NCBI RefSeq assembly: GCF_018614975.1
Contig: NZ_JAGGNR010000005.1
Location: forward strand, 146,695-210,694
Direction of reading: 5' to 3'
Length of the DNA: 64,000 nucleotides
Source: Paenibacillus polymyxa
GTDB taxonomy: Bacteria > Bacillota > Bacilli > Paenibacillales > Paenibacillaceae
Below, piece by piece: positions 24,344 to 40,286 of the stretch. Under the pieces are notes generated by a model, which searched no databases, was not told the origin of the DNA, and saw only the letters and a program-made list of their open reading frames with translations. The position numbers and the translations under genes were made by a program. Every line of letters begins with the position of its first letter. The first letter of the stretch is position 1.

Positions 24344-24580
24344 ATGGTCATTAAAGCGACTCCCATTACATTGGAACAATTGAAGAACAAAGAGTTGGAA
24401 GCAGTACAATCGGAAGTGAACGTGCTGGGCGAAACACGTGAAGTTAGTGCTCGTGCAGTATCGGCTCGCGCAGTATCGGCTCGCGCAGTATCGGCTCGCG
24501 CAGTATCGGCTCGTGCGGTATCGGCTCGTGCAGTATCGGCTCGTGCAGTATCGGCTCGTGCAGTATCGGCTCGTGCATAA
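24344..24580 (+). CDS. Repeat precursor peptide: leader plus nine VSARA pentapeptides (new RiPP precursor candidate)
   Basis: 78 residues from an ATG with AAAGGAGG ten bases upstream. Residues 1-33 look like a leader (TPITLEQLKNKELEAVQSEV, helical, charged, ending GETRE). Residues 34-78 are nine exact tandem copies of Val-Ser-Ala-Arg-Ala up to the stop. Only Arg and Ser in each unit carry reactive side chains. The DNA units are 15 bp; the first differs (gttagtgctcgtgca), and the others vary only at Arg and Ala wobble positions. It heads a long operon with an arginase-fold enzyme, acyl-transfer genes and peptidases. I infer a ribosomal peptide whose Arg become Orn and are then acylated, and which is cut into repeat units. 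Confidence 0.8.
   Translation: MVIKATPITLEQLKNKELEAVQSEVNVLGETREVSARAVSARAVSARAVSARAVSARAVSARAVSARAVSARAVSARA
24443..24577 (+). repeat. Nine tandem 15-bp units encoding VSARA
   Basis: Unit 1 is gttagtgctcgtgca; units 2-4 are gtatcggctcgcgca; unit 5 is gtatcggctcgtgcg; units 6-9 are gtatcggctcgtgca. Blocks of identical units point to recent expansion by slippage or unequal exchange. Copy number may vary between strains. Confidence 0.95.
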
Positions 24581-24696
24581 TCCCTTGTATCTACTATGGC
24601 ATTATGGTTAGTCCAATAGATGAGAGCTTCGGATGAAGCTCTCTCCCTATATTGAGAGTGCTCCGTATGATGGGTATAACGAGGTGTCCTGAACCG

Positions 24697-25704
24697 ATGC
24701 ATATCAAGCAAATATGGTCATACATTCCCAAGTTCGTCGTTCCTGTCCGGGAGTTGAACGAACATCTGGGACTCAAACAAGCCCAGACCAAAGTGTTAGA
24801 GAAAATTCACGGTCTGAAACAGGTTCCGCAAGACAAAGACGGTGATCTGACTAAGCTGTTAGGACGTGTGCTCGCCCAGGTGGTAAACAGTCCGACGGTT
24901 GTTCCATCTTCCATCAAGTATATCATTTATTGCCACACAATTCAGGAAAATTTCCCCTTTCCAATGAAGGTATTGCAAGGTCTGAAGCAGGCTTACGATA
25001 TGCATCATGCCATAGCGTTTTCACTGACACAGCAGAACTGTGCCTCGGGTCTGATTGCGCTGGATGTTGCTGCAACATTGCTGCCCTCTTTGGAAGAGGA
25101 TGATCATATTTTAATCGTAACAGGCGAAAAAACATTCAGTCCCATTGTACAGCTCATCCCCAATACAACCGTTATGGGCGAAGCTGCGGCCGCCATACTG
25201 GTTGGTAAATCCGGGCCGGGAAGCAGGATGATGGGGCTTACGAACGTAACCCTTGGAAAATTCTGCAACGTGCTGACAGGTGATCCCGAGACGCTCAAGG
25301 AATTTCAGGAAATCTATACACCCCAGCTCTGTGATGTCATTCACGAGGCAATCGATGGGGCGGGCCTGACGTTGGAGGATATCCGTTATATTGTCCCGCA
25401 CAATGTGAATCTGTCTTCCTGGAAAAAGGTTGCTGCACGATTGTCCTATCCATTGGACCGTGTGTACACATCCAATGTGGGAGAAATCGGGCACTGCTTC
25501 TGTTCCGATCCCTATATCAATCTGAAAGAGATTTCAGATCAGGGGCTTTTGCAGAAGGACGACTACTATTTGCTTGTCACGGTTGGGCTGGGAGCAACAT
25601 TCAGCGTGGCGGTGATGCAGTTCGCAGAAGAACGAGGTGATGAGATTGACCGCACTGTTGACCGGATTTTCGAGAAAGCTGAAGCAGGCGCTTACAGGTC
25701 ATGA
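24697..25704 (+). CDS. KASIII-like ketoacyl synthase, active-site Cys present (first of four)
   Basis: About 335 residues from the ATG at 24697, chosen because MHIKQIWSYIPKFVVP is the normal FabH-type start; the frame is open from a TTG at 24652. Active-site residues: Cys115 in TQQNCASG, His235 in VPHNVN, and His266 in EIGHCFCSD, where FabH has Asn. Such enzymes condense or transfer acyl groups held on a carrier protein or CoA. The Cys-His-His set recalls chain-elongating KAS I/II and some acyl-transferring KASIII relatives. It follows the repeat precursor and overlaps the ATP-grasp gene, so it belongs to the same operon. Confidence 0.8.
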   Translation: MHIKQIWSYIPKFVVPVRELNEHLGLKQAQTKVLEKIHGLKQVPQDKDGDLTKLLGRVLAQVVNSPTVVPSSIKYIIYCHTIQENFPFPMKVLQGLKQAYDMHHAIAFSLTQQNCASGLIALDVAATLLPSLEEDDHILIVTGEKTFSPIVQLIPNTTVMGEAAAAILVGKSGPGSRMMGLTNVTLGKFCNVLTGDPETLKEFQEIYTPQLCDVIHEAIDGAGLTLEDIRYIVPHNVNLSSWKKVAARLSYPLDRVYTSNVGEIGHCFCSDPYINLKEISDQGLLQKDDYYLLVTVGLGATFSVAVMQFAEERGDEIDRTVDRIFEKAEAGAYRS

Positions 25705-27034
25705 TGAAGCTGTTTTTATTTATATAAACAATTTTGAAGTCGAAGAATACTGGAATGAGCAGGGGGTACTGAAGTTGCCTTCCCTGAGTGTTGGTTCGGG
25801 TGCTGACGTTGTAAACCGGATGGAGGAGCTGGGGATTTTTCTGGCAGGTGAACAGGATGTCGTATTGCTCAAGGAGCTGCCGGATTCCGGGTTTATAGCA
25901 GATGCACAGGCCATCGGTTTTGGTCAATCACGTTTAATTGCTACTGAATATAATGAACCGGGCTTGAACATTACAGCTAACATCCTGCATTGTCAGCGTA
26001 CGCTGGACAGGCTGCGTGAACTTGCAGACAGACAGGATATACAGGCTTATCTGGTTCCCTTCGGAGCCTCGGATCATGAAGAAGAACTAGCCCAACGCAC
26101 GGGTATTCCTCTTGCCGTACCTCCGGCTGACATTTTCCGCAAAGTCAATGATAAGGGCTATTCCCGAAGGCTTAATGCCGAACTGGGTATCCGTCAGATT
26201 CCTGGCTGTGAGTGTTACTCTCTGGAGGAACTTACGTCCGGATTTGAACGTATGAAATCCGTGCTGGAACAGGGCGGGCGTATTGTCATGAAGGATTCGA
26301 TGGGCGTCTCGGGCAAGGGAATCACCGTTATTGCAGATGAAGCCCGTTTCCACAAATGCATGAAATTACTGGAGAAACAGGCAAGCAAGAATGGGACAAG
26401 AGTCGTTAATTATGTGCTGGAGCAGTGGATGAACAAGACATGTGATCTGAATTACCAGATTTTAGTTTATCGAAGTGGTGAGGTTGAATTTCTTGGTGTG
26501 AAGGAATCCCTGGTCGAACAGGGTGTTCATCAGGGGCATCTCATGCCACCACATCTTGGTGATTCGCAGATCGCGGTAATCCGGGATGCTGCGTTGCAAA
26601 TAGGTGCTGCGCTCCATCGGGACGGATACTACGGTGTAGCCGGTATCGATGCCATTCTGGATGAGGACGGAAGTGTGTGGCCTAATCTGGAGATCAATGC
26701 ACGGTTTAACATGTCGACGTATCAGACTGAGATCCAGAACCAGTGGATTCCTGAGGGGATGTTAGCTTTGGCCAAAAAATATACACTTCGTTTGAATCAC
26801 CGCCTGGATTATGGAAAGTTAAGGTCAACACTTGGTCCGCTGTTATTTGATCCACTGAAGGGCGAGGGGATACTTATCAACAATTTTGCAACGGTCAATG
26901 CGGCCTTCAAAGGTGAAGATCGTGTGTTCTCTGGTCGTCTCTATGGTGTCATTATTGCTCATTCGGCTGAGCAGCTACGGGCGACGGATGCTGCGGTTGA
27001 AGCCAAGCTATCATTCATAAACGAGGTGAAGTAG
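25640..27034 (+). CDS. ATP-grasp ligase, BtrJ-like (amino acid to carrier protein)
   Basis: About 464 residues from ATG 25640 (GTG 25637 in frame just before), overlapping the upstream gene by 65 bases. ATP-grasp marks are KDSMGVSGKGITVI (glycine-rich nucleotide loop), VLEQWMNK, and the metal-binding end VWPNLEINARFN. Size and neighbours match BtrJ of butirosin biosynthesis, which ligates L-glutamate to the carrier BtrI using ATP. The next two genes are the matching decarboxylase and carrier. Which amino acid is loaded here cannot be read from the sequence. It is cytoplasmic, and a start unit for the acyl part of the product is the likely output. Confidence 0.75.
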   Translation: MRLTALLTGFSRKLKQALTGHDEAVFIYINNFEVEEYWNEQGVLKLPSLSVGSGADVVNRMEELGIFLAGEQDVVLLKELPDSGFIADAQAIGFGQSRLIATEYNEPGLNITANILHCQRTLDRLRELADRQDIQAYLVPFGASDHEEELAQRTGIPLAVPPADIFRKVNDKGYSRRLNAELGIRQIPGCECYSLEELTSGFERMKSVLEQGGRIVMKDSMGVSGKGITVIADEARFHKCMKLLEKQASKNGTRVVNYVLEQWMNKTCDLNYQILVYRSGEVEFLGVKESLVEQGVHQGHLMPPHLGDSQIAVIRDAALQIGAALHRDGYYGVAGIDAILDEDGSVWPNLEINARFNMSTYQTEIQNQWIPEGMLALAKKYTLRLNHRLDYGKLRSTLGPLLFDPLKGEGILINNFATVNAAFKGEDRVFSGRLYGVIIAHSAEQLRATDAAVEAKLSFINEVK

Positions 27035-28324: not shown

Positions 28325-28330
28325 GGAGAG

Positions 28331-28600
28331 ATGATGATCATGACAACCGCAGTATTGCTTGAAGAAATCAAAGGTGCCCTTGCTGAAGTGTTGAATATGG
28401 AAGAGAACCAGGCTGTTACATGGGACACATCCTTATTTGATGAGCTTCATCTGGATTCAACGTCTGTTCTGGAACTATTGATGACGTTGGAAGACCGTAT
28501 TGACGGGCTGGAGATCGACCCGGATGAACTGGAGCCAGATGTATTTAACACAGTGGGTTCGCTAGCTGTATATATCGAAAAGCAACTCGTTGCTGCCTGA
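28331..28600 (+). CDS. Acyl/peptidyl carrier protein (BtrI-like)
   Basis: Up to 89 residues; ATGs at 28331, 28334 and 28340 are all possible behind GAGGAG. The phosphopantetheine attachment site is ELHLDSTSVLELL (Ser43 of the longest form). The acidic helical protein ends in AVYIEKQLVAA. It holds the acyl chain as a thioester, and a phosphopantetheinyl transferase at 39489 in the same operon can convert it to the holo form. Its stop overlaps the start of the next gene (TGATG). Confidence 0.85.
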   Translation: MMIMTTAVLLEEIKGALAEVLNMEENQAVTWDTSLFDELHLDSTSVLELLMTLEDRIDGLEIDPDELEPDVFNTVGSLAVYIEKQLVAA

Positions 28601-29472
28601 TGGCGGCGCCTGTTACCATCCGGGACATGAAGGTCAGGCTGTTTACGGACAAGCAGCCTCCGTTTGAACATCCGGAGTTGTTAAGATTTCACAGTGATTT
28701 GTTGGCGGGGTCCCCCGTGGTACCCCGGTTTCATCTGCTGGAGGGTCGTTATAACAATGCCTATCATGATATGAGTGTACTACTGCTCGAAGAGTCGGGG
28801 CTGGATCAGATCATGGGAGACGTGGATGTTCTCCTGCTGGCCTACCATTTTCCCAATATTCGTCCAGATATCTCCATCGTCAACTATCTGATGGACCGTT
28901 ATCAGGCACAGTTCCTGAGCTTTGCCGTGAACGATATGGGATTCGGGGCACCGTTCGCGGCACTCCATATGCTCCAGCATTATCTGAACAGTGGCAACTA
29001 CGATCGGGGAATGCTGCTTGTGCTTGATCAGACGTCTCTTCCCTACGAGACGGAAGATGTGGGCGAGATTGTAGAACCTGACACGGGAGCTGTTCTGTTC
29101 CTGGATCGGTTGGCAGAAGGCGGTTCATCCCTTGTCGGTGTGGAGATACAATATGCCGAGAGTTCGATAGCCGAGACAGCAGAACTGCTGCTGGACAGGC
29201 TTTGTGTTCAGGTGTCCGTCAATCTGGCTCAGATCAGGCTTCTTGTCCATCCGCTGTTGGAGCAGGAAGTGTCCGGTACTGAATGGTTTCATGCTACAGG
29301 CTGGCAAGGGAGTTACGATCCTGCCCACTGGAGCGCTGCACCATTCTTTGGTCTGAAGCAACTTCTTGAAGATCGGTGCACAGGTGAATACATATGTCTG
29401 ATGCACCTGGAGCCAGATGACAAGTTTATCTATGCACTTCTCATTCATACAGGCGGATACGAAGAGCTGTAA
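28600..29472 (+). CDS. Degenerate KASIII-like protein without active-site Cys
   Basis: 290 residues. The overall pattern is a thiolase fold (DVDVLLLAYHFPN; DTGAVLFLDRL; IRLLVHPLLEQ where KAS has its HxxN region). At the nucleophile position it reads VNDMGFGAPFAAL instead of the usual NCAS, so there is no Cys, and the second active-site His block is also lost. It probably does not catalyse condensation itself. It sits between the carrier and an intact KASIII (29492), like the KS-beta/chain-length factor in type II polyketide systems, so a partner role is plausible. Confidence 0.65.
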   Translation: MAAPVTIRDMKVRLFTDKQPPFEHPELLRFHSDLLAGSPVVPRFHLLEGRYNNAYHDMSVLLLEESGLDQIMGDVDVLLLAYHFPNIRPDISIVNYLMDRYQAQFLSFAVNDMGFGAPFAALHMLQHYLNSGNYDRGMLLVLDQTSLPYETEDVGEIVEPDTGAVLFLDRLAEGGSSLVGVEIQYAESSIAETAELLLDRLCVQVSVNLAQIRLLVHPLLEQEVSGTEWFHATGWQGSYDPAHWSAAPFFGLKQLLEDRCTGEYICLMHLEPDDKFIYALLIHTGGYEEL

Positions 29473-29491
29473 TCAGGAGGAGGGAAACGTG

Positions 29492-30439
29492 ATGGGGCTG
29501 GGTATAGTGGATATCGGTGTATATTTGCCTGATCAGATCGAAGAGCCTGAGGTTATCCTCGAATCCTTGGGACTGGGTAAAGGTGAGCTTCAATTGCTGC
29601 GCAGATATCATCGTCTGAACGGTGTTCCCGTTACCCCTCCGGGTCAGCATCTGGATAATTCTATCGTTCGCGCGATCGGACAGCTTGTTGACAGACAACC
29701 CTTGCCTGCCATTGACCTTGTGCTCTATGCCCATTCTGCACATGTACAAGCACCAGGGGATTATAGGCCCTTGCAGCGGGCTCTGAGTGAATATGGGCTT
29801 GAGCATATCCCCTTCTATAGTATTTCACAGATGAACTGTGCGTCCTCGATAGCCGCTCTTCAATGGCTTGAACGAATCTCCCGTACACAGCCTGATATTC
29901 GTAATGTTTTATTGGTATGTGCCGATCAGTTTAATTTCATGCCACCCGACTGGAGATATATTCGAAAGTCTACGATTCTGGGTGACTCGGCTGTTGCCAT
30001 GCTTCTATCCAGAAACCATGGTCAGCACGTCTTACAGGCTGCTCATGTTCTTCGGGATACGAGGTTCCATACTGGATATTATGCGGAAGTGGAGGAGATG
30101 ACGTCATTTAACAAGCTGTATGTGGATCATATCATTCGAGGCATGGAAGAGCTGCTGTCAGCAGAGGGCCTGACACTTCATGATGTAGATCATATCTTTC
30201 CCCACAACGTCAATTGGACTACATGGAAGGAGTTTTCAAAGCGTACAGGCGTGGATCAAAAACAAATTTACCTGGATAATATCCCGCGGATTGGACATAC
30301 CTTCTCCACGGATGCGTTCATCAATCTAAGCTCCGGGCTAGAGAATGAATGGGTGCATAAGGGGGAGAGGTCCGTACTGGTCAGCATTGGGCTGGGCAGT
30401 TTTTTTGGTTTTGCGTTAATTGAGCATGGAGATTGTTGA
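29492..30439 (+). CDS. KASIII-like ketoacyl synthase, active-site Cys present (third of four)
   Basis: 315 residues from ATG 29492 with AGGAGGAGGG upstream. It begins in the normal FabH way (GLGIVDIGVYLPDQI). Active site: Cys116 in QMNCASS, His238 in FPHNVNW, and His269 in RIGHTFSTD where FabH has Asn. The same Asn-to-His change occurs in the first KASIII (24697), so the two are close relatives. It probably extends or transfers the chain on the operon's carrier protein, perhaps together with the Cys-less neighbour upstream. Confidence 0.8.
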   Translation: MGLGIVDIGVYLPDQIEEPEVILESLGLGKGELQLLRRYHRLNGVPVTPPGQHLDNSIVRAIGQLVDRQPLPAIDLVLYAHSAHVQAPGDYRPLQRALSEYGLEHIPFYSISQMNCASSIAALQWLERISRTQPDIRNVLLVCADQFNFMPPDWRYIRKSTILGDSAVAMLLSRNHGQHVLQAAHVLRDTRFHTGYYAEVEEMTSFNKLYVDHIIRGMEELLSAEGLTLHDVDHIFPHNVNWTTWKEFSKRTGVDQKQIYLDNIPRIGHTFSTDAFINLSSGLENEWVHKGERSVLVSIGLGSFFGFALIEHGDC

Positions 30440-30464
30440 TCATGAGTCAAGAGGAGGAGTGCAT

Positions 30465-31199
30465 ATGTCAGTCTTGAATGCTGATGAGGTAGGCACTGTG
30501 CCGGTTGGTGCAGAGGCCGCAGGTCGTCCGGTACCAACTGTAACAGATCTGCTGGAAGCAGCAATGTTGCGTTTGGATACCCGTCCCGTGTTGCTATGCC
30601 AAGGGGGGATAATACTGGCGACACCTGAACTCGTGAAAAGTGGGCCATGGATATGTCATGCAGAGACAGGCCGTATCTACGAATGGAAACAGGTACGTGC
30701 GGATCGGGTGGAAGATCGGATGATGGAGCCTTCAGGTCTTTTACTCTACCGAATATCGGAACTTCGGAATGAAGATGTGGCATTTTTTGAAAGACAAGAT
30801 GATGTAACAGGTAATATAGCTGATCTCCGAAATCGGTTGCTTTATTTCCGTACTGAACTGTGTAGCGCAGGATTGGAGCAAGTGCGTAATCATCTATCCA
30901 GTCGCAACTCAGGGGGGCAATCCACACTTCAGCATCAACTGGTCAAGGGCATGATTGCTGATATTTTGACTGTACTATATATGGCTGAAACTATTCAGTC
31001 GGATGAATTCGTATTAGAGCAATCAGGCATTTCGGAGGCTCGTACAAGCACATGGGTTCATCAAGAACTGGATGAGGCCTTCCGTCAATTGCAGCGTCTT
31101 GGAGGAGGATTTGGCTATTTGCGACATGCGATCTCGGCTTACGTGTATGTAGGTCAAATGGTCAAAAATATGCTGCTCATTCCGAAGGAGGCCTTCTGA
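30465..31199 (+). CDS. Acyl-CoA dehydrogenase-like protein, truncated and lacking catalytic motif
   Basis: 244 residues from ATG 30465 with GAGGAGG upstream. The C-terminal half resembles the last helical domain of acyl-CoA dehydrogenases (LQHQLVKGMIADILTVLYMAE; LQRLGGGFGYLRHAISAYV, like the LGGxGY segment). The N-terminal half is not recognisable, and the catalytic Glu motif is absent. Its stop overlaps the start of a full-length acyl-CoA dehydrogenase gene. I infer a subunit or structural partner of that enzyme. Confidence 0.55.
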   Translation: MSVLNADEVGTVPVGAEAAGRPVPTVTDLLEAAMLRLDTRPVLLCQGGIILATPELVKSGPWICHAETGRIYEWKQVRADRVEDRMMEPSGLLLYRISELRNEDVAFFERQDDVTGNIADLRNRLLYFRTELCSAGLEQVRNHLSSRNSGGQSTLQHQLVKGMIADILTVLYMAETIQSDEFVLEQSGISEARTSTWVHQELDEAFRQLQRLGGGFGYLRHAISAYVYVGQMVKNMLLIPKEAF

Positions 31200-32356
31200 T
31201 GATTACACGATCTACCATTGCTGTTTTTGAGCAGGAAATGAAACAATATGCCACGGATTTACGTGATATTGGCCTGGTTATTGACCGTGAACCTGAGCGT
31301 ATAGCTGATTTTACACATCTGGCATCTATGCGAACCATCAATCGCATGATGATCCCGCCGGAATATGGCGGTGAACCGATCGTCACTGTAGGTCAGGAAC
31401 GATATTATGGTCTTTCCTGTCTGGAAAGAGTTATCGCGATTGAGGAGCTGTCAGCAGGAGATGCCGGTGTATTTCTCGGGAGCCCGGGTCCATCGATGTC
31501 CAGTGTAATCATATCAGCACTGGCTGACTCACAACAGAAGGAGCGGTACTATTCTCATTTTCTCAAGGGACCCGCGTGGTCATTCTTCGCTCTTACTGAA
31601 CCGGAAAAAGGCTCGGATGCTACTGGTATTGGCACACGAATTTCGCGGAACAAGGAAGGTGAACTGAACCTTGACGGACAGAAGTTCTATATCGGTAATG
31701 GTAGTCGTGCCAGCATCGGACTGGTATTTGCCCAGACCAATCGTACGCCTCTCGGCATACAGATCGCGCTGGTAGACACGTCTGTGCAGGGATTTAGTGC
31801 CATACCTCTGGATACGATGGGGGTTAGAGGTGTGCAATTGAGTCATCTCACGTTGGATGGTTTTCCGCTGGCTGAGGAAGATATCATTGGGCGTCATCTC
31901 AGTCCAACCAAGCGCGGATTATGGGGCGCGCTTCAGACCTTTCATCGTATGCGGCCTGGTGTCGCTGCACTTGCGCTTGGAGTCGCACGGGCAGCATATG
32001 ATTATGTGAAGGAGCATAGGTCCGTTTTCTCGGAGAGGGAGAAGGTGGAGTTAGAGCGACTGGAGATGCGTCTGCATTCACTCCGTAGTATGATTCGCAG
32101 CGCAGCGGCGGAGATTGATGCGGATGTGCAAAAAGGGTATCTGGCTTCCCTGAGCAAAATTCGTGCTGGAGCACTGGCTGAGGAGGCCACGGAACTGGCG
32201 CTTGACCTGATGGGACCTGGTTCCATGATTGACCATCCTTTATTGAATAAATGGTATCGGGATGCGCGTGCTTTCGAATTCATGGAAGGAACTACCTCCA
32301 TTCAGAAGATCAACGTTTTCCAAGCCTATGCCAATGGAAAAATGAAGCATGCCTGA
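31199..32356 (+). CDS. Acyl-CoA dehydrogenase family flavoprotein
   Basis: 385 residues. Full family pattern: MIPPEYGGEP, FFALTEPEKGSDATG (FAD/substrate loop), FYIGNGSRA, and the C-terminal FEFMEGTTSIQKIN with the catalytic base Glu in the EGT motif. It oxidises the alpha-beta bond of an acyl thioester using FAD. In carrier-protein pathways related enzymes act on acyl-S-carrier substrates (for example prolyl-S-PCP oxidases). Here the likely substrate is the amino-acyl chain on the operon's carrier. Overlapping start and stop codons tie it to both neighbours. Confidence 0.8.
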   Translation: MITRSTIAVFEQEMKQYATDLRDIGLVIDREPERIADFTHLASMRTINRMMIPPEYGGEPIVTVGQERYYGLSCLERVIAIEELSAGDAGVFLGSPGPSMSSVIISALADSQQKERYYSHFLKGPAWSFFALTEPEKGSDATGIGTRISRNKEGELNLDGQKFYIGNGSRASIGLVFAQTNRTPLGIQIALVDTSVQGFSAIPLDTMGVRGVQLSHLTLDGFPLAEEDIIGRHLSPTKRGLWGALQTFHRMRPGVAALALGVARAAYDYVKEHRSVFSEREKVELERLEMRLHSLRSMIRSAAAEIDADVQKGYLASLSKIRAGALAEEATELALDLMGPGSMIDHPLLNKWYRDARAFEFMEGTTSIQKINVFQAYANGKMKHA

Positions 32357-33302
32357 TACGCTGAATAACCCTCGTGAGATATCTGTCTATGTTAATCATA
32401 TCTGTTGGGTTACGGCCGAAGATCACTTGTATACCACGGACATGCTCGATGTGGAAGATTACTATTACTTATCTCCGCACATATATATGGAAGAGAACTA
32501 TTATGACAGATCTACTGTACGAACCCGCTCTTTGCGATCTGATGATCAACGGGTAACTGCTGGTGATCTTGCGCTAGTTGTCATGGAACCTTTGGCTTCT
32601 GGTACAAGTGAGCGCTGGGATCTGCTGATTCTGGCTCAGACCTATCCTGAACGTTACGCCATGAATCCACCTTTGGCCCGAATTCTGGAGTCTACCTCCT
32701 GGAAGGTGGACTATCCACTGGCACTTTCCCATATGGGACCACTCGCTGCTACGGAAGGAATGCAGGCTGCAGCATGGACACTAGGGAGAGAGGAACGGGG
32801 GATGTTTGTTCTGACGGAACAACGTGTGATTGAAGAGCACGAATCTCCCGGAGTTCTGTCTGATATGGCTGTTGCCCTGGAGTTAAACAGTCAGTCCGGT
32901 GCGCTTGCCGTGAATTATATAGGAAAGAGAACGGTTGACGATATCGAAGGGAGTGTTATGGCTTCAGAGATTATATCCATTATAGATGAGTTCATGGATG
33001 CTGGTCAGACGGAGACTATTCTTCTTCAATCCCGTTTACGTAGACACATAATCCCTTATTTTAAGCCAGGCATGTCCTTGATCAAGTCAGTCTACCACGT
33101 GCCTGAAACCATCGATTACCAGAGTGGCGACGTGTGGATACAGCTTGCTGAACAATTACAGAACGGAAACATAAAGGTAGATGATCGTGTTCTATTGATA
33201 TCCTGGGATGGCGAACGGCTGTTATCAGCCTGCTGTGTACATGTAGTACATATGCCTGTCCTGAGTCGTCTCACACTACATCAGGAAGTGAAGACATCAT
33301 GA
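32349..33302 (+). CDS. Second degenerate KASIII-like protein without active-site Cys
   Basis: 317 residues, overlapping the dehydrogenase gene by eight bases. The thiolase-type layout is weak but visible (LLILAQTYPERYAMN; LALSHMGPLAATEGMQAAAW at the nucleophile elbow; MFVLTEQRVIE; ALELNSQSGALAVNY; DDRVLLISWDGERLLSACCV near the end). The Cys of the NCAS motif is replaced (HMGPLAA), and the His blocks are not found. A non-catalytic partner for one of the intact KASIII proteins is the best guess. It could also bind the peptide or carrier. Confidence 0.55.
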   Translation: MPDTLNNPREISVYVNHICWVTAEDHLYTTDMLDVEDYYYLSPHIYMEENYYDRSTVRTRSLRSDDQRVTAGDLALVVMEPLASGTSERWDLLILAQTYPERYAMNPPLARILESTSWKVDYPLALSHMGPLAATEGMQAAAWTLGREERGMFVLTEQRVIEEHESPGVLSDMAVALELNSQSGALAVNYIGKRTVDDIEGSVMASEIISIIDEFMDAGQTETILLQSRLRRHIIPYFKPGMSLIKSVYHVPETIDYQSGDVWIQLAEQLQNGNIKVDDRVLLISWDGERLLSACCVHVVHMPVLSRLTLHQEVKTS

Positions 33303-33315
33303 ATGGAGGAGGGGA

Positions 33316-34701
33316 TTGAATTTGAAAGGTCTGGATTACACTTCGGGATCGGTGAACCGGCTGTTAATCCGCACTGCAATACCGATGCTGCTTGCTTCTT
33401 TGGTTAACGTAACAACGCAGCTGGTCAATGTTTTTTTTATGGGTCATACCAGTCAGACCGTGTTATATGTGCTATCACTGTATATTCCCATTTCCTTTAT
33501 CATGATTGCACTTGTGGAAGCCATGCAATTGTCGGTTCAGGTTGCTGTCTCACGGAGCAGAGCGGAGGGTTCGCGGGCTTTTACTTCGCTACTTGGGCAT
33601 ATGCTGGGCAGCGCAGCTATTTTTTCAATTGTTGCTGGCGGTGTGGTTATGCTGGTGTCGCCACTTCTCTCCTGGTTTTATGCCGTCCCTATGGATGTAA
33701 GGCCCTTGTTTACCGTTTATGTGGCGGGCATGATGGCAGCAGGTGTGCCCGCTGTGCTCGCAGCGGTGGGTGGTGCTGCACTACGTGGGTTGGGCCGGGC
33801 TCAAGCGGCAGCGTGGAATTCCGTAGGTACGGCATCGCTCAACATTATGCTGGTGTACTGGTTCGTTTCGGTGGCTGGAATGGAATTGAAGGGAATTGTA
33901 TACGCCAATCTTATTTCTTCAACACTCTCTTTGCTCATAAGCCTCCTGATTCTGATATTGAGGAAGGAGTTCGTGTATGAACGGATAACATTTGTGTGGA
34001 AACATCTCATTGCACTTCAGCAGGTAGGTATTCCCGTATTTATTTCGTACTGTCTTATCTTTTTGAGTACTTTCTTTTTCAACAAAATCGTCAGTCGATT
34101 TGGGGAAGGGGTAGTTGCTGGATTCGGAGTTGGATACCGAATACAGACGATGGCTATACTGCCTGGAATCGTTATTGGATCGGCTATCGGGATCATGATT
34201 AATCATAATCTCAAAGAGGCTCATCGACCGCGTGCATACGAGAGCTATCGCAGAGGCCTGGTACAGTCATTCATTCTTTATGCCGTAATTGCCGTATCCA
34301 TCTGGGCATGGCGGGAACCGTTGACAGCTTTCCTGATTGCGGACCCCGTATCCCGTGCAGAAGCGGCCCGATATCTGGCAGTGGTTTCCCTTTCCTATCT
34401 GACCATGGGTCCTATGATGACGACGCTGCTTACCATGGAACAGAGCGGACGCGGCTATCAGGCCCTGCTTATGAATGCTGCATATTTTCTGCTTATTATT
34501 GTTGCAGGGTGGGGGCTGACACGAATCTTTGATCATGTGGGATACTTCTATGGCGTCATTGCTTTTGTTAATGCAGCGAGTTTATTATGCATCTTACCCG
34601 TGATCAGGCTGTTCAAAAAGGACTATACAGATTCATCCGGGCATAAACCAACTGACGTGGATGAGCAGGAGGGTCTAGCTGCTCAGAGTTATTCGACATA
34701 G
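33316..34701 (+). CDS. MATE family multidrug/metabolite exporter
   Basis: 461 residues from a TTG with GGAGG six bases upstream. About twelve hydrophobic helices in two similar halves, with the MATE start pattern (RLLIRTAIPMLLASLVN; FFMGHTSQTVL; QVAVSRSRAEGS). MATE proteins export organic cations using H+ or Na+ gradients. It is the only transporter in the operon, so it probably exports the finished product, which is expected to be cationic if ornithine or omega-amino groups remain. Confidence 0.85.
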   Translation: MNLKGLDYTSGSVNRLLIRTAIPMLLASLVNVTTQLVNVFFMGHTSQTVLYVLSLYIPISFIMIALVEAMQLSVQVAVSRSRAEGSRAFTSLLGHMLGSAAIFSIVAGGVVMLVSPLLSWFYAVPMDVRPLFTVYVAGMMAAGVPAVLAAVGGAALRGLGRAQAAAWNSVGTASLNIMLVYWFVSVAGMELKGIVYANLISSTLSLLISLLILILRKEFVYERITFVWKHLIALQQVGIPVFISYCLIFLSTFFFNKIVSRFGEGVVAGFGVGYRIQTMAILPGIVIGSAIGIMINHNLKEAHRPRAYESYRRGLVQSFILYAVIAVSIWAWREPLTAFLIADPVSRAEAARYLAVVSLSYLTMGPMMTTLLTMEQSGRGYQALLMNAAYFLLIIVAGWGLTRIFDHVGYFYGVIAFVNAASLLCILPVIRLFKKDYTDSSGHKPTDVDEQEGLAAQSYST

Positions 34702-34734
34702 ATATAACCAATATCAAATAGAGGAGGTCTCTTT

Positions 34735-35868
34735 ATGAAAGCTCCGGAACCTGCATACCTGGTACGCCGCATCGGTGATACGTTGATTGCAGCCGATGAG
34801 ACGTTCAGCCAGTTCTATCAGATTGAACCCGCTGAAGAACTGGAGCCTCGTCCCATTCCACGGTTGGATGGCGTCGCTCCTCCAGTTGTCCCTTTTTTTT
34901 CACTGGAACCCCTGGTTAGTCACGATTCACCGCATCTCTATATGCTGGGTATTCCCTATTCGGGAGGTTCAGGTATGGAGGGATCAAATGTTGCCGGATT
35001 TGAGCAATCTCTTCGGGCCGAATCATGGAAAAAGGTAATGTATCCAGCTCTGACGCAATCCCGCATATCAGGACTATATGACATTGGCAGTGGCCAGAGA
35101 TTACTTGAATCAGTAATGATGCAGGATTTGGGTACTTGCCAAACAGATGAGTCGGATTTTTCCTACTCGAAGGGTCTTAACTCAGCTCTGGTACATACCG
35201 AAAGGGAAGAGGCACTACTGTGCTGCATTGGTGGAGATCATTCCATTACGTATTCCATCCTGAAATCCATATTGAGTCGAACAAGCGCAAGAATCATACT
35301 CGTCCAGTTTGATGCCCACCATGATTGCGGGGTGGATGCTATTCATCAGAATGAGATGCATCATGCCAATTTTGTGAGGCATCTACTGACGGAGGACGGT
35401 ATCGCCGCAGTCGTGCAGATTGGTCTGCGCGGCCTTCGTTCTGTAGATCAGATGTACAAACATCCCAAATTGGTTCAGATTCCTGCAGAACAGATGACCC
35501 CGGAACGAGTGCGGACAACCCTGCTTGATATACAGCACAAGTTTCAGGCGGAAGCGGCCTATTTATCGTTTGACTTAGATTGTCTTGATCCTGGGAGTTT
35601 TCCTTATGTTGATTTTCCTATCAGTGGAGGCCCCTCATGGTTTAACACCCGAAACTGTGTGGTCGCAGCGCTGGAATCCTCCTTGTCCTACGTGGGCTTT
35701 GATATGGTGGAAGGGCAGGAAGCAGAATCGGATGAACGCATTCCGGGGCAATATGAGATGGCCCTCAGAATGCTTACGTATATGATGGATGGCATGCACC
35801 GAAATTACCTTCGACACCGAAAAGGTGCTCTTAGAGTTTCTCAAGCCTTGGAGGGGACACATAGATGA
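34735..35868 (+). CDS. Arginase-fold ureohydrolase, probable peptide arginase
   Basis: 377 residues from ATG 34735 with GAGGAGG. All manganese motifs of the ureohydrolase family are present: GGDHS (Asp168, His169), DAHHD (Asp193, His195, Asp197) and SFDLDCLDP (Asp280, Asp282). It is longer than free arginases, with about 70 extra N-terminal residues. In the landornamide pathway the homologue OspR turns arginine residues inside a ribosomal peptide into ornithine and urea. This operon begins with a peptide holding nine arginines in its repeats, so I infer Arg to Orn conversion on VSARA. Agmatinase or free arginase activity is the alternative. Confidence 0.8.
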   Translation: MKAPEPAYLVRRIGDTLIAADETFSQFYQIEPAEELEPRPIPRLDGVAPPVVPFFSLEPLVSHDSPHLYMLGIPYSGGSGMEGSNVAGFEQSLRAESWKKVMYPALTQSRISGLYDIGSGQRLLESVMMQDLGTCQTDESDFSYSKGLNSALVHTEREEALLCCIGGDHSITYSILKSILSRTSARIILVQFDAHHDCGVDAIHQNEMHHANFVRHLLTEDGIAAVVQIGLRGLRSVDQMYKHPKLVQIPAEQMTPERVRTTLLDIQHKFQAEAAYLSFDLDCLDPGSFPYVDFPISGGPSWFNTRNCVVAALESSLSYVGFDMVEGQEAESDERIPGQYEMALRMLTYMMDGMHRNYLRHRKGALRVSQALEGTHR

Positions 35869-36842
35869 TGAACTTTAGATCTTTGTATCATATGTACCGT
35901 GAACAGGTCAGAGATGAACTTCATAGGGAGCGGCAGGATGGCATTCATTTGGGGTCCTTTTATGCACTGATGAACATTATCAAGGAGATGGCTCCGCTTA
36001 AGCCGAAGCAGTCTCCCGAGTCTATCTGGATGGACTATCTCGCATTTCTTCGTACGATTAATGAGCACAAGAAAAGCCCCTACTCGTTTATGGAGTGGGA
36101 TGAGGTAGAGGGGCGGGAACATCTGCAGGCAACGTTGCGTGAAGGTGGTGCATTATTAACCTGGCATTACGGGTTCGTGAGGCACAATATGATTACAATC
36201 GGTCAGGAAATACGTGCAGGCCACATGCCTGTCAAGCTCCCGTTTTATCTGATCGCCGAGCAGGAAACAGTCGAACAAGAGAAAAAGCTGTCCGGCTGGG
36301 AGGCCATCCGCAAGTATGCAGGTGCGGAACTGCTCAATGCGGAGGATGAGATGATTGGCATCAGGCTGTATTCCCATTTGCGGAAAGGTGGATCATTCAG
36401 TCTTTTTGTAGATGGACAGACCGGATTCAATACGGATAACCATGCTGTTGAACTACCTTTTCTAAGTTCGAAAATTCGCACGCGAAGTGGTATTTTTCGT
36501 ATTTTGGCCAAAACACAAAAGCCAGTATGTGTATACTTTATGACCCTTACAGAGGACTTTCGTTCCAAGATCGTTTTTCTGCCACCGGTTGTATTGGATC
36601 AGGATATTCAGGATTCTGCTGATAGGATATACGAGCCATTTCGCGAGCAACTGTTAAGCCAGCCAGCATTGTGGCGTTTCTGGGACAGGCATCACCAGCA
36701 GGTCATTCACTGGCAAGATGATGAAACGTCAATTACTGATGAAGCAGTCGGCCGTGTGGACTGGATTTCCAAGCCACTTGATGGTTTTGGACAGCTCGGT
36801 CTGAACACGGACAGTGGGGTAATCTATAATATCAGTTCGTAG
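35865..36842 (+). CDS. LpxL/LPLAT-like acyltransferase with altered active-site motif
   Basis: 325 residues, overlapping the arginase gene by four bases. It resembles the lysophospholipid/lipid A late acyltransferase fold: GGALLTWHYGFVRHNM at the position of the HxxxxD/E motif, and FVDGQTGFNTDNHAVELPFL with RSGIFRILAKTQKPVCVYF, like the second LpxL block. The usual acidic residue five positions after the His is not there (HYGFVR), so catalysis may differ. No membrane helix is obvious. Placed right after the arginase, it is a good candidate for moving the carrier-bound acyl chain onto the new ornithine amines, as GNAT enzymes do in selidamides. That role is inferred. Confidence 0.55.
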   Translation: MMNFRSLYHMYREQVRDELHRERQDGIHLGSFYALMNIIKEMAPLKPKQSPESIWMDYLAFLRTINEHKKSPYSFMEWDEVEGREHLQATLREGGALLTWHYGFVRHNMITIGQEIRAGHMPVKLPFYLIAEQETVEQEKKLSGWEAIRKYAGAELLNAEDEMIGIRLYSHLRKGGSFSLFVDGQTGFNTDNHAVELPFLSSKIRTRSGIFRILAKTQKPVCVYFMTLTEDFRSKIVFLPPVVLDQDIQDSADRIYEPFREQLLSQPALWRFWDRHHQQVIHWQDDETSITDEAVGRVDWISKPLDGFGQLGLNTDSGVIYNISS

Positions 36843-36867
36843 ATGGAAATGAGAGGAGGGGCGTAAG

Positions 36868-38226
36868 ATGCAGTCTTTTATTACTGAGAGGCGTAACAAT
36901 ATGTCGGTGCATGTGCTGCCAACAAACCAATATGCCAATGATTACGTGCAGATTAATCTGATTAATGCACAGCAAAACATACCCTCAGCAATATTTATCA
37001 TGATCGTCCGTTTGTTAATAAACAGTTGTCGTCGCTTTCCATCGAACAGGCTGCTCCAGCAACAGTTATGGTCCCTGTATGGTGCAGAACTGACCTGTCG
37101 TTTTGATTACAAAGGCGATACTCAGATTGCCTCGATCACGATGCGCATACCTCGTATAACAGAAGATAAGTTAATAACTGGAACACAGATGGAAACCATA
37201 CATAGCGCTTTGCAATTACTCGCAGGTTTGTTGTATGACCCAGCGGTTGATGATCATGGCATGTTCGAAGAGATGCAAGTAAAGGATGAAATGGCTTGGA
37301 CTGAACATCATATCGCGCATGCGGGAACGGATTGGGACAAGGTGGTGCAGAGCCGTTGTCTGGAATGGATGGGATATGAAGGGCAGAACCGCCAATTGGC
37401 TCTGGATGAACTACGGAATTGTGTCATGTCTCATGAGTTGTGTCGGCACTATCAGGCATTGATTCACATTCCGATCCATGTTCATGTTCTTGGCGATATT
37501 CATCCTGGACGAATTATGGATCTGATCTGGGAACAATTTGGATATGGGAACAGGGACGTGTTCAAACGCTGTTGTTCGGAGAGAGAATTAGAACTACACC
37601 CAATCAACACACAATATCCAGGAGAGGAAGAAGTAGAGGGACGACAAGGTAATCCTGCCAAGCAGCGGGAGGCTGAAGCCATGATGATGGAACTGTTGGA
37701 CATTCACCAGTGCAAGATCAATGTTACTTATCGTACAGGTATTCGATATGGCTCTGCTTTATATCCGGCTTTGTTTGTATTCCATACCTTATTTGGAGCG
37801 ACACCCGCATCCCGGTTGCAGGTTGAATTACGTGAACGATCCCAGTTGGTATATCAAGTTACCAGCACACTGGATGATTTTCGGGAAACGCTTCACATTA
37901 CAACGGGCACCAGCAGTGCTAACGTGACGGATGTTCTCGAAGGAATCGATATGGAATGGAAAAGAATCTGTGACGGAGATGTATCCGAGAGGGAGTTATA
38001 TACCGCTGTACAGAATGTGATGCATTATGTTCAGGTCGGATTCGATCTGCCACATCAGGTCATTACCAATCATATGGATCGGGTGTTGAGCGAAAGTCAG
38101 ATGACGACTGTACAATTCCTTAAAGAAATAGCAGAAGTAACTCCTGAAAGGGTGGCTTTCGTTGCTACCGAGTTGAGGAAAGAAGTCACATGGATTCTGT
38201 ACCCTGAGAGTGAATATTCCGCATAG
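36868..38226 (+). CDS. M16 peptidase-like subunit without zinc motif (YmfF/AlbE-type)
   Basis: 452 residues from ATG 36868 behind GAGGAGGGG. The fold pattern follows M16B peptidases (QIASITMRIPRIT; FHTLFGATPASRLQVELRERSQLVYQVTSTLDD; DLPHQVITNHMDRVL), but the N-terminal HxxEH zinc-binding motif is absent. In Bacillus, YmfF pairs with the active YmfH, and in subtilosin biosynthesis AlbE pairs with AlbF. The next gene here is the active partner. The two probably form a cytoplasmic heterodimer that cuts the modified repeat peptide. Confidence 0.8.
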   Translation: MQSFITERRNNMSVHVLPTNQYANDYVQINLINAQQNIPSAIFIMIVRLLINSCRRFPSNRLLQQQLWSLYGAELTCRFDYKGDTQIASITMRIPRITEDKLITGTQMETIHSALQLLAGLLYDPAVDDHGMFEEMQVKDEMAWTEHHIAHAGTDWDKVVQSRCLEWMGYEGQNRQLALDELRNCVMSHELCRHYQALIHIPIHVHVLGDIHPGRIMDLIWEQFGYGNRDVFKRCCSERELELHPINTQYPGEEEVEGRQGNPAKQREAEAMMMELLDIHQCKINVTYRTGIRYGSALYPALFVFHTLFGATPASRLQVELRERSQLVYQVTSTLDDFRETLHITTGTSSANVTDVLEGIDMEWKRICDGDVSERELYTAVQNVMHYVQVGFDLPHQVITNHMDRVLSESQMTTVQFLKEIAEVTPERVAFVATELRKEVTWILYPESEYSA

Positions 38227-38241
38227 TACAGGAGGGGAATT

Positions 38242-39459
38242 ATGAATAGTACCACATTAAATTCATGTGTCTGCAAGCGTTTATCCAACGGCCTGAACGT
38301 GAGCATACTGCCACAACCCAAATATAGTCATGCATTTGTATCCTGTTCTGTACCCTATGGGTCCATTCACGATATTACGCTTGCGGGTACGGCACATTTT
38401 CTCGAACACATGATGTTTTACAATCCCGATGGTCAGTCCGTCAAATCACTTCTTCATGCCGAAGGGGCCTCAACGTCGGCGCTGACGCGTTATGATGTAA
38501 CGACGTACCAACTTGCTTGTACAGGTAATCTAAGGAACAGCCTTCAACTTTTTATGAACATGATTGCAACCCCCTATTTCACGAAAAAAAACATTGAGCG
38601 TGAGCGGGCGGCGATTCATCAGGAACTGGAAATGTACAAGGATCAACCCTCCTGGCTGGCTCTTCAGCAATTGTTGCAAATGATGTATGGTAACGACCAT
38701 CCAATCACACTGGATGTTGCGGGCACACCGGAGAGTATAGCCGACATTACCGTAGAATGGCTAAGCAATGCCTATGCAAGTCATTATGCGGCTTCTCGAT
38801 TGTCTGTGGCAGTAGTGGGTCCTGTTGAACCGACGGAGATATTCGAATGGTTAGAGAACTTTTCGATGGATCAACCCAAGATCATGTCCCATACTCCAAT
38901 CATTCAGCCGTTGCAGGAGCAGGACGAGACTTATAAGGAAATGAATGGTGGATCTTCAATACCTCTTGTCCGGTTTGGCTTTCAGGAAGAGAGACCGATT
39001 ACGCGAATGGAGACTCAGGTTGCAACCATGATTGGTATCGAAGCCCTTCTGGGAGAGACTTCAACCTTCTTCACAGAGAGTGTGAAGTCAGGTTTGCTCG
39101 GGAAAGGGAGTCATTGGGATCACTATTACAGGCAGGAATTTGCTTTCTCCAATGTCTGTGGGTATTCCGTTAATCCCGTTGAATTACATCAACGAGTTAA
39201 GGAAGAATGCAGTCGTATTCAGGACCGTATGCTCTCTTCCGAAGATATACATTATGCTCGGATGAAGTGGATCAGTAATCACTATGCAGATATGGATTCA
39301 TTGAAAAAACGTTGCATGCACATCTCTGAATATGGCGTTATCGGGCTGGATTACATGCAAATGAGCGAATGTGCTATGAAACTGACGGAGGAAGAGATTG
39401 GACTTCACCTAAAACGTATAGCGAAACCGGGTCATCTGAGGATGTCCGTTGTTCGTTGA
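38242..39459 (+). CDS. M16B zinc metallopeptidase (YmfH/AlbF-type, active subunit)
   Basis: 405 residues. The zinc motif HFLEH (His52, Glu55, His56) is followed by the distal Glu region ERAAIHQELEMYKD, and the C-terminal M16 domain is present (SFFTESVKSG-like segment, YRQEFAFSNVCGYS). These enzymes close like a clam around peptides and cut inside them, which suits a precursor of 78 residues. It lies 15 bases behind its inactive partner gene. It is likely to release the repeat units or remove the leader. Confidence 0.85.
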   Translation: MNSTTLNSCVCKRLSNGLNVSILPQPKYSHAFVSCSVPYGSIHDITLAGTAHFLEHMMFYNPDGQSVKSLLHAEGASTSALTRYDVTTYQLACTGNLRNSLQLFMNMIATPYFTKKNIERERAAIHQELEMYKDQPSWLALQQLLQMMYGNDHPITLDVAGTPESIADITVEWLSNAYASHYAASRLSVAVVGPVEPTEIFEWLENFSMDQPKIMSHTPIIQPLQEQDETYKEMNGGSSIPLVRFGFQEERPITRMETQVATMIGIEALLGETSTFFTESVKSGLLGKGSHWDHYYRQEFAFSNVCGYSVNPVELHQRVKEECSRIQDRMLSSEDIHYARMKWISNHYADMDSLKKRCMHISEYGVIGLDYMQMSECAMKLTEEEIGLHLKRIAKPGHLRMSVVR

Positions 39460-39488
39460 GCAAGAAGAGTAGGAAGAGGAGTGACCTT

Positions 39489-40286
39489 ATGAAACCTGCA
39501 GTTACAGGGTGGAAGGAATCTGCTGCGGTTCAGTTTGCGGCAAATGAAGTACATATCTGGATACAGCCTCTTCCGCACAAGGGAGAGGGCTTTTTGTCAA
39601 GGTTGGATATAGACACCTGTGTACTGAGCCAGGATGAAATTAAACGTGTACAGAGAAAACAGAAACAATCCATGTATGATGCTCAGAAGCTGGTTATATC
39701 GCGTACATTTCTGAGAGAAGTACTAGCGATGTACACGGGTCAATCAGCGTCAGATATTCATATTGAATATGGGGATTCAGGCAAACCCTATGTTCAGAGC
39801 GGACCACAGTTTAACCTTTCTCATACCGAAGGGTGTTGTGTACTGGCATTAGCGGCTCATACAGAGCTGGGAATTGATCTTGAGCATGTACGTCCGTTGC
39901 TGCGGATGAGCGCGGTAATCAGGCGATTTTTGACGGAAGATGAGAAGTGTTATGTACTGGATCACAGGGAGGAGGAACAGGTAACGATCCAGCGTGTTTG
40001 GCAAGTTCTCACACAAAAAGAGGCTTGGATTAAGGCGTGTGGTCAATCTCTGTCCGGACAGTGGCGAAAACTGAATACGATGGGAGAAGGGTTAGATGGG
40101 CATCACGTTGTGGAACGGGAAGGGCAACATTATAATTTGCAGTCTTTGAACGTAGGTCCGAATTATTCCGCCACCTTATGCACTACAGGGAAGACAAGAC
40201 CACTTGTACGCTGGATGAATGTTGCTGATGATAAACAAAGCAAAGAGGAAATTAAAAAAAATATAACTCACATATCTATTGTCTAA
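39489..40286 (+). CDS. 4'-phosphopantetheinyl transferase (Sfp type)
   Basis: 265 residues from ATG 39489 with GGAGTGACC upstream; the frame is open before it but overlaps the peptidase gene. Sfp-family marks: SGKPYVQSGPQFNLSHTEG, GIDLEHV (magnesium-binding GxDxE), and WQVLTQKEAWIKACG (WxxKEA). It attaches phosphopantetheine from CoA to the Ser of the carrier protein at 28331. A dedicated transferase in the operon argues that carrier-bound chemistry is central to the product. Confidence 0.9.
   Translation: MKPAVTGWKESAAVQFAANEVHIWIQPLPHKGEGFLSRLDIDTCVLSQDEIKRVQRKQKQSMYDAQKLVISRTFLREVLAMYTGQSASDIHIEYGDSGKPYVQSGPQFNLSHTEGCCVLALAAHTELGIDLEHVRPLLRMSAVIRRFLTEDEKCYVLDHREEEQVTIQRVWQVLTQKEAWIKACGQSLSGQWRKLNTMGEGLDGHHVVEREGQHYNLQSLNVGPNYSATLCTTGKTRPLVRWMNVADDKQSKEEIKKNITHISIV

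What the first reader, a model, noticed from the sequence alone, without database searches (positions are those of the whole stretch)
24344..40286. Hybrid operon: repeat RiPP precursor plus carrier-protein acyl machinery
Seen: one + strand run of overlapping or tightly spaced genes combines a nine-repeat peptide (VSARA), an ATP-grasp ligase, a PLP decarboxylase, a carrier protein, four KASIII-fold proteins, two acyl-CoA-dehydrogenase-type proteins, a MATE exporter, an arginase-fold enzyme, an LpxL-like acyltransferase, an M16 pair and a phosphopantetheinyl transferase. Known: each family has a role in separate pathways (butirosin side chain, landornamide ornithines, subtilosin-type M16 pairs). 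Inference: the genes together make an ornithine-rich ribosomal peptide decorated with an amino-acyl or fatty-acyl group. I know of no described pathway with this set.
Basis: partly seen in the sequence, partly recalled or inferred. Interest (0 to 1): 0.95.

Follow-up and report, generated by a model that had tools for sequence, protein, structure and literature searches.

The report
Arginase-primed acylated repeat-peptide gene cluster
A run of 16 genes in Paenibacillus pairs a tiny repeat peptide with enzymes predicted to turn each repeat's arginine into ornithine and then likely to attach a purpose-built acyl group to it; three relatives without the arginase gene carry lysine in that very spot, which points to a new family of acylated ribosomal peptides.

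Summary
A 78-residue precursor with nine VSARA units leads a tight 16-gene run (24344-40286). Twenty of the 74 other genomes searched in the genus carry the same cluster in the same order, each with a precursor; distant relatives add five more full clusters and ten reduced ones (precursor, M50-like protease, arginase or not, LpxL-like acyltransferase, MFS exporter). All 36 loci have a precursor.

The key result is a natural swap. In 31 of 31 loci with the arginase gene, precursors end in Arg-Ala or Arg-Cys. Of five loci without it, three end in Lys-Ala or Lys-Cys, and none has Arg in the core as I set its border. What is conserved is thus a side-chain primary amine. The acyltransferase, the only modifying enzyme found in all 36 loci, has an LpxM-like predicted fold and most likely acylates that amine. 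In full clusters a BtrK-like decarboxylase, ATP-grasp ligase, carrier protein, KASIII-type proteins and an acyl-CoA dehydrogenase would build a dedicated acyl group. RRNPP-type (peptide quorum-sensing) regulators adjoin several clusters.

No chemistry was measured; the swap rests on three independent switches, one imperfect.

The parts
22904..24160 (-). Divergent HTH + TPR regulator (RRNPP-like architecture)
   Evidence: HTH_3 and TPR_12 in Pfam; beside the precursor in all 20 relatives of the genus
24344..24580 (+). Precursor peptide: short leader plus nine VSARA units
   Evidence: translation; same place in 20 of 20 relatives
24622..24643 (+). Stem-loop between precursor and enzyme genes (possible attenuator or mRNA stability element)
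   Evidence: 9-bp stem GAGAGCTTC/GAAGCTCTC; same kind of hairpin in 9 of 11 relatives folded, different in L048 and L049; no terminator-like site
24652..25704 (+). KASIII-type condensing enzyme or acyltransferase, active-type (C130, H250, H281); an in-frame ATG further in may be the true start
   Evidence: PF08541/PF08545; residues invariant in 23 of 23 aligned
25637..27034 (+). ATP-grasp ligase, predicted to load an amino acid onto the carrier protein
   Evidence: PF18604, PF02222
27035..28324 (+). PLP decarboxylase, nearest solved relative BtrK
   Evidence: BtrK 311 bits vs 200 for the best DAP decarboxylase
28331..28600 (+). Acyl/peptidyl carrier protein
   Evidence: PF00550, LDSTS site
28600..29472 (+). 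KASIII-fold protein, no Cys in the stretch that looks like the active-site segment; predicted partner subunit
29417..30439 (+). KASIII-type enzyme, active-type (C141, H263, H294)
   Evidence: C and second H in 22 of 22, H263 in 21 of 22 aligned; FabH Asn replaced by His
30420..31199 (+). Possible half acyl-CoA dehydrogenase (C-terminal domain like)
   Evidence: weak profile match E 0.0014 to the C-terminal part of 4u83; hhalign to 31199-32356 failed
31199..32356 (+). Acyl-CoA dehydrogenase family enzyme with EGT motif
   Evidence: PF00441/PF02770/PF02771; E363-G364-T365 invariant in 11 aligned
32349..33302 (+).
   Evidence: in the window and 25 other full clusters; no fold confirmed
33316..34701 (+). 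MATE exporter
   Evidence: PF01554
34735..35868 (+). PF00491 arginase, predicted to act on the Arg of each repeat
   Evidence: metal-site motifs GGDHS, DAHxD, DxD invariant
35865..36842 (+). LpxL/LpxM-fold acyltransferase, predicted to acylate the Orn/Lys side chain
36868..38226 (+). M16B protease, YmfF-like subunit
   Evidence: NF047422, 189 bits, under its cut-off of 285
38242..39459 (+). M16B protease, YmfH-like subunit with HFLEH zinc motif
   Evidence: NF047421, 230 bits, under its cut-off of 250; sequence
39369..40286 (+). Phosphopantetheinyl transferase for the carrier protein
   Evidence: PF01648
40372..42183 (+). S9 peptidase; membership doubtful
   Evidence: 85 nt downstream but no match in L045 and L050, which have the cluster

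Best explanation
This is a gene cluster for a multi-copy ribosomal peptide (RiPP) whose one basic residue per repeat is predicted to be exposed as a primary amine (Arg to Orn by the arginase, or Lys directly) and then likely acylated by the LpxL-like acyltransferase. Steps. Shown by sequence: the precursor, its uniform repeats, the conserved enzyme set, and the match between arginase gene and core residue. Inferred: (1) the HTH-TPR regulator controls a promoter ahead of the precursor; (2) enzymes bind the short leader motif (xPIxxxxL); (3) the arginase removes urea from every core Arg, leaving Orn; (4) a separate line loads an amino acid, probably glutamate through its gamma-carboxyl, on the carrier protein (ATP-grasp), decarboxylates it there (BtrK-like step, giving a GABA-type thioester), and extends or transfers and desaturates it with the KASIII-type proteins and the dehydrogenase; (5) the LpxM-fold enzyme moves this acyl group onto the Orn or Lys side-chain nitrogen; (6) the M16B pair cuts off the leader and separates the repeats, giving pentapeptides that end in Orn(acyl)-Ala; (7) the MATE protein exports them. 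In the reduced clusters an M50-like protease and an MFS exporter would stand in for steps 6 and 7, and the acyl donor would come from ordinary metabolism.
Against: No product, mass or enzyme assay. The 36 loci are heavily related: the tree needs only three changes of the arginase state, sign test p 0.25 (the core state was entered by hand). L111 and L112 (no arginase, no core Arg) do not end in Lys-Ala/Cys; all five of their cores contain Lys, but in only two of the four L111 cores does Lys stand right before Cys, so the target residue in that branch is unclear. The leader/core border is my own placing. The acyltransferase has Hx4R (Hx5R in L111 and L112) where the family motif recalled from the literature is Hx4D/E, so its chemistry could be altered. 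The nature of the acyl group rests on family resemblance; the KASIII proteins have Cys-His-His rather than FabH's Cys-His-Asn, the first His of the second one is Tyr in L129, and no ketoreductase or dehydratase matched in the run. The branch that unites the acyltransferases of full clusters has support 92/92, below the starred level. The acyltransferase frame is broken in L049.
Confidence: 0.66

Rival explanations
1. The acyl group goes elsewhere on the peptide: onto the Cys thiol (S-acyl) or onto the new N-terminus after cleavage, and Orn/Lys serves another role such as charge or recognition.
For: Cys follows the basic residue in the eight reduced clusters with arginase and in L073, L128, L129; in L111/L112 Cys is kept where Lys moves about. 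N-terminal acylation is known in lipoavitides and goadvionins (PMC13060382 passages).
Against: Ala replaces Cys in Paenibacillus, L074 and L108. Arg is already charged, so a switch between Arg plus arginase and Lys makes sense mainly if a primary amine is needed.
Confidence: 0.15
2. The peptide is a quorum-sensing pheromone of an RRNPP receptor, and acylation by this route makes the signal; the cluster is a signalling system rather than an antibiotic pathway.
For: HTH-TPR protein beside the precursor in Paenibacillus and L073; RNPP_C regulator in L106, Rgg_C regulators in L110, L125, L126, L127; M50-like proteases with HExxH in all ten reduced loci recall Eep, the protease that matures SHP precursors (PMC12445099 passages; that Eep is an M50 enzyme is recalled); pentapeptide units.
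Against: L130 and L131 have TetR-type regulators instead, and the neighbours that I scanned in L108 and L109 are not RRNPP (not every ORF there was scanned); Rgg/SHP systems also switch on RiPP clusters such as streptide (PMC12445099), so the regulator need not sense this peptide; the nine acyl-module genes are a heavy outfit for a signal.
Confidence: 0.3
3. The repeat peptide is a sacrificial scaffold: many copies of an Orn/Lys acceptor are acylated, then proteases release a small acyl-ornithine metabolite, and the sequence around it does not matter.
For: In Paenibacillus units only Arg, followed by Ala in 190 of 191 cases, is fixed; the other positions drift among small residues and Glu within one precursor; MATE exporter and, in 18 of 20 relatives of the genus, an S9 peptidase nearby.
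Against: Reduced clusters have one to three units with distinct sequences, such as KITVIRC kept in four genomes; S9 is missing in two of 20 relatives.
Confidence: 0.12
4. Two pathways share an operon: the carrier-protein genes make a free small molecule and the peptide is modified only by arginase and acyltransferase with ordinary fatty acyl donors.
For: Reduced clusters do without the module; L075 and L076 have part of the module with no match to arginase or acyltransferase in the held stretch and no short ORF with repeats.
Against: In 26 of 26 full clusters module and precursor stay in one tight run across distant Bacillota, and the acyltransferases of full clusters need one change of state on the tree.
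Confidence: 0.15

Closest known systems
Selidamides (phaeornamide, kamptornamide) and nostolysamides
   Same: RiPPs with acylated Orn or Lys side chains (PMC12703449 section 4, PMC13060382 passages)
   Different: Their acyltransferase is a GNAT; the Orn-forming peptide arginases described there are pfam12640. Here an LpxM-fold protein, a PF00491 arginase, a short multi-copy precursor, and no GNAT match in the run
Enteropeptins (KgrD arginase)
   Same: PF00491 arginase that makes Orn in a RiPP (PMC12703449 section 4)
   Different: Enteropeptins carry a thiomorpholine made before the arginase acts and an N-methylated Orn; no radical enzyme or methyltransferase match in the run
Lipoavitides, goadvionins, microvionin
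   Same: RiPPs joined to an acyl group; KASIII-built acyl in lipoavitides (recalled, not read)
   Different: [quoted passage not shown] no lanthionine synthetase match here
Butirosin side-chain genes btrI, btrJ, btrK
   Same: Carrier protein, ATP-grasp and a decarboxylase nearest to BtrK; BtrI/J/K take part in making and transferring the aminobutyryl moiety of butirosin (PMC11405602 passages), step chemistry recalled
   Different: Butirosin adds the unit to an aminoglycoside; here KASIII-type proteins and a dehydrogenase are added and a peptide is the likely acceptor
Paenithopeptins (PttP1/PttP2)
   Same: YmfF/YmfH-type M16B pair as leader protease in Paenibacillus (PMC8960859 passages)
   Different: Class III lanthipeptides; no lanthionine synthetase match here
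Rgg/SHP and other RRNPP systems
   Same: Short precursor, M50-like protease and RNPP or Rgg regulator in several reduced clusters
   Different: RRNPP pheromones are taken to be short and unmodified (PMC12998947, start of abstract in the listing); here arginase and acyltransferase are added

Membership tests
RiPP pathway in general | genetically linked precursor gene with leader and core next to modifying enzymes | tested here: met
   36 of 36 loci; shared leader motif
RiPP pathway in general | modified core peptide found in the producer | not testable with these tools
   needs mass spectrometry
Selidamides | GNAT acyltransferase in the cluster | tested here: not met
   no GNAT match among the proteins of the run
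Selidamides | acylated Orn/Lys side chain | not testable with these tools
   inferred only
Peptide arginase family pfam12640 (OspR) | pfam12640 match with its motifs | tested here: not met
   34735-35868 matches PF00491 only at E <= 0.001
Ureohydrolases PF00491 | PF00491 match and six metal-binding residues (assignment recalled) | tested here: met
   112.5 bits; H169, D193, H195, D197, D280, D282 invariant
LpxL/LpxM acyltransferases | LPLAT fold | tested here: met
   [not shown]
LpxL/LpxM acyltransferases | Hx4D/E catalytic motif (recalled) | tested here: not met
   H101 and R106 invariant in the wide alignment, so Hx4R (one extra residue between them in L111 and L112)
FabH (KASIII) | Cys-His-Asn triad (recalled) | tested here: not met
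   Cys-His-His in both active-type proteins
BtrI/BtrJ/BtrK unit | decarboxylase nearest to BtrK, with carrier protein and ATP-grasp gene adjacent | tested here: met
   and gene order
BtrI/BtrJ/BtrK unit | glutamyl-carrier substrate | not testable with these tools
   needs in vitro loading
Lipoavitides / class III lanthipeptides | lanthionine synthetase (LanKC) | tested here: not met
   no kinase or LanC match among the 16 gene products of the run
YmfF/YmfH-type M16B protease pair | one subunit with HxxEH, one without, adjacent genes | tested here: met
   PF00675 and HFLEH in 38242-39459, PF05193 only in 36868-38226; both below the NCBIfam equivalog cut-offs
RRNPP quorum-sensing system | HTH-TPR type receptor gene next to a secreted-peptide gene | tested here: inconclusive
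   receptor-like genes beside the window cluster, 20 relatives, L073, L106, L110, L125-L127; not in L130, L131 (TetR) nor among the neighbours scanned in L108, L109; the precursors show no evident signal sequence (by eye)
RRNPP quorum-sensing system | receptor binds the mature peptide | not testable with these tools
   no binding assay

The most novel reading that the evidence does not exclude
A new RiPP class in which the ribosome supplies rows of near-identical amine acceptors and a free-standing, amino-acid-primed carrier-protein line builds a nitrogen-bearing (GABA-started, KASIII-extended, desaturated) acyl unit that an LpxM-fold enzyme installs on each Orn or Lys; the resulting acylated pentapeptides act as modified peptide signals or antibiotics under an RRNPP receptor. 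It would join lipid-A-type acyltransferases with ribosomal peptides, with Arg-plus-arginase and Lys as interchangeable routes to the same amine.
Probability: 0.28. Interest if true: 0.92.

Novelty: new variant of a known kind. Interest (0 to 1): 0.8.

Why it matters
If right, a lipid-A-type acyltransferase fold has been recruited to modify ribosomal peptides, independently of the GNATs in the acylated RiPPs that I found described, and a whole carrier-protein pathway serves one amine on a five-residue unit. The arginase/lysine swap gives a rule, readable from sequence alone, that predicts which residue is modified. The reduced clusters make the chemistry testable in E. coli with three genes. 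The recurring RRNPP-type regulators raise the question whether peptide pheromones can be acylated.

Tried and rejected
Arginase as supplier of free ornithine for the PLP decarboxylase: rejected, because eight reduced clusters have the arginase without the decarboxylase and three full clusters have the decarboxylase without the arginase.

Precursor as chance low-complexity ORF: rejected, since it lies at the same place with the same leader in 20 of 20 relatives of the genus and with a related leader in distant genera.

KASIII fold for 32349-33302: not confirmed (hhalign probability 9.9%; no PDB profile match). Acyl-CoA dehydrogenase kinship of 30420-31199: hhalign to its neighbour failed; only a weak PDB profile match. 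Profile search of the acyltransferase against PDB sequences found nothing; only the fold search did. hhalign of 28600-29472 with KASIII failed; its model succeeded.

A terminator or promoter by consensus scan around the precursor: none found.

Five clusters with a 43-45% identical decarboxylase (L052-L056) and four with 38-40% (L057-L060) hold an ATP-grasp match as well, but of the other module enzymes at most KASIII (L052), and are other gene sets. Protein search with the wide acyltransferase alignment gave 11 proteins without genomic context; they were not used in the counts. Protein search with the precursor gave 7 proteins, called hypothetical or uncharacterized where named.

Literature: ten searches over open-licence PubMed Central; among the papers listed (top rows only) no title or abstract start describes this gene set. 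Subscription papers are not covered, so absence from print is not shown. Papers: PMC12703449, outline, section 4 and a term search; PMC13060382, PMC11405602, PMC7425212, PMC9765709, PMC12445099, PMC8960859, passages only; PMC12998947, listing only. Recalled, from no call: Hx4D/E motif, FabH triad, arginase metal ligands, BtrJ chemistry, lipoavitide KASIII, Eep being M50, role of the EGT glutamate, pairing of active and inactive subunits as in PqsBC.

Dropped rows: L045 and L051 (several shortened frames) were left out of the residue counts but kept in the precursor counts; L128 is also not (L129 stands for it). L107 lies on a contig of the same length as that of L074 and is taken as the same genome, not counted twice; L061-L072 lie on contigs of the same lengths as Paenibacillus loci already held and are not counted. 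One search did not list L111 and L112, whose precursors do not end in Lys/Arg-Ala/Cys: 38 of 43 precursors in the 36 loci do.

Full report

Conservation. A search of 75 genomes of the genus, the window's own included, with the decarboxylase gave strong orthologues (66% identity or more) in 20 genomes besides the window's own. All 20 loci hold matches in the same order from the HTH-TPR regulator through the PPTase, and each has a precursor with the leader M..KATPITLEQLK and 5 to 21 core Arg. Two of them (L045, L051) have several shortened frames. The S9 peptidase is missing in L045 and L050, so it is not counted as part.

Distant relatives. A scan of named genomes with the KASIII alignment brought Bacillus sp. 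RO2 (L073), with the full enzyme set, and Polycladospora coralii (L074), with the full set less the arginase. Searches with the acyltransferase alignment hit 22 of 394 genomes of the family, 16 of 398 of the class, 3 of 398 of the phylum, 20 of 392 of the order (the groups overlap) and 7 of 200 in the family of G751; four narrower searches gave nothing new. The loci outside the genus hit in these genome searches were fetched: full clusters L108, L128, L129, the Polycladospora locus again, and reduced ones L106, L109, L110, L111, L112, L125, L126, L127, L130, L131. All ten reduced loci hold the acyltransferase, an HExxH protease of M50 type and an MFS exporter, and eight of ten the arginase (Pfam, where the M50 matches are weak, 16.8 to 28.4 bits). 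Counting the window and its 20 relatives, that is 26 full and 10 reduced loci, and all 36 have a precursor.

The swap. In 31 loci the arginase gene is present, and all their precursors end in Arg-Ala or Arg-Cys. In five it is absent. L074 has 28 Lys and no Arg in its core. L128 and L129 end in Cys-Lys-Cys or Gly-Lys-Cys where L073, their sister on the acyltransferase tree, ends in Ile-Arg-Cys. L111 and L112 have no core Arg and have Lys in all five cores, but not in the terminal pair. The five genomes show no arginase of the cluster type elsewhere: best 45-68 bits against 472-546 bits. An Arg near the leader/core border remains in the Lys-type precursors; I count it as leader, because the Arg-type precursors have one there too. 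The simplest reading is that a primary amine on the core residue is needed. Statistically this rests on three independent switches (sign test p 0.25, with the core state entered by hand), so the strength lies in the residue-level match rather than in numbers.

The acyl module. The decarboxylase is nearest to BtrK (311 bits against 200 for the next family). With the ATP-grasp and carrier-protein genes adjacent, the parallel with the butirosin side chain suggests gamma-glutamyl loading and decarboxylation on the carrier; this is inference. Both active-type KASIII proteins carry Cys-His-His instead of Cys-His-Asn. The module travels as a block with the peptide genes in 26 of 26 full clusters, and the acyltransferases of full clusters need one change of state on the tree (branch support 92/92). 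Two gammaproteobacterial bins (L075, L076) hold part of the module (decarboxylase, KASIII and dehydrogenase matches, and a carrier-protein match in L075) with AMP-binding (adenylation) enzymes; no match to arginase or acyltransferase was found in the held stretches and no short ORF with repeats, so the block can be used elsewhere.

Proteases, export, control. The M16 pair is YmfF/YmfH-like, the type shown to remove RiPP leaders in Paenibacillus (PMC8960859). RRNPP-type regulators stand beside the window cluster and its relatives, L073, L106, L110, L125, L126, L127; L130 and L131 have TetR-type genes instead. This may mean cell-density control or that the peptide is itself a signal.

Verdict. 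It is a new variant of acylated RiPPs: arginase and acyltransferase belong to other families than those of the selidamides.

Noticed in passing
L075 1279-10897, L076 4192-14039: Gammaproteobacterial bins carry decarboxylase, KASIII-like and dehydrogenase genes of the module (carrier-protein match in L075) together with AMP-binding enzymes; no arginase or LpxL-like match and no repeat-bearing short ORF found in the held stretch.
   Followed up: partly
L111 8734-9360: Four paralogous short precursors in a row, Cys-rich and without core Arg, ahead of an M50-like protease, the acyltransferase and an exporter.
   Followed up: partly
L130 10762-11787, L131 8005-9033: Reduced clusters with tandem precursors (NVIRCVIRC) carry an extra 341-342 aa protein next to the acyltransferase (no Pfam or NCBIfam match for the L130 copy); by eye it looks methyltransferase-like.
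   Followed up: partly
L073 4738-5139, L129 18505-18906: PPTase genes of the short ACPS type (Pfam ACPS) upstream of the precursor, where Paenibacillus has its PPTase at the far end.
   Followed up: partly
L049 (G065), acyltransferase gene: The acyltransferase reading frame is split in this genome while the precursor is intact; real loss or assembly error is unknown.
   Followed up: no
L052 (G017): A different cluster with KASIII, ATP-grasp (35% identity) and a 44% identical decarboxylase in the same genus.
   Followed up: no
L060 (own genome, another contig): A second, distant decarboxylase and ATP-grasp pair (38% and 25% identity) in the window's own genome.
   Followed up: no
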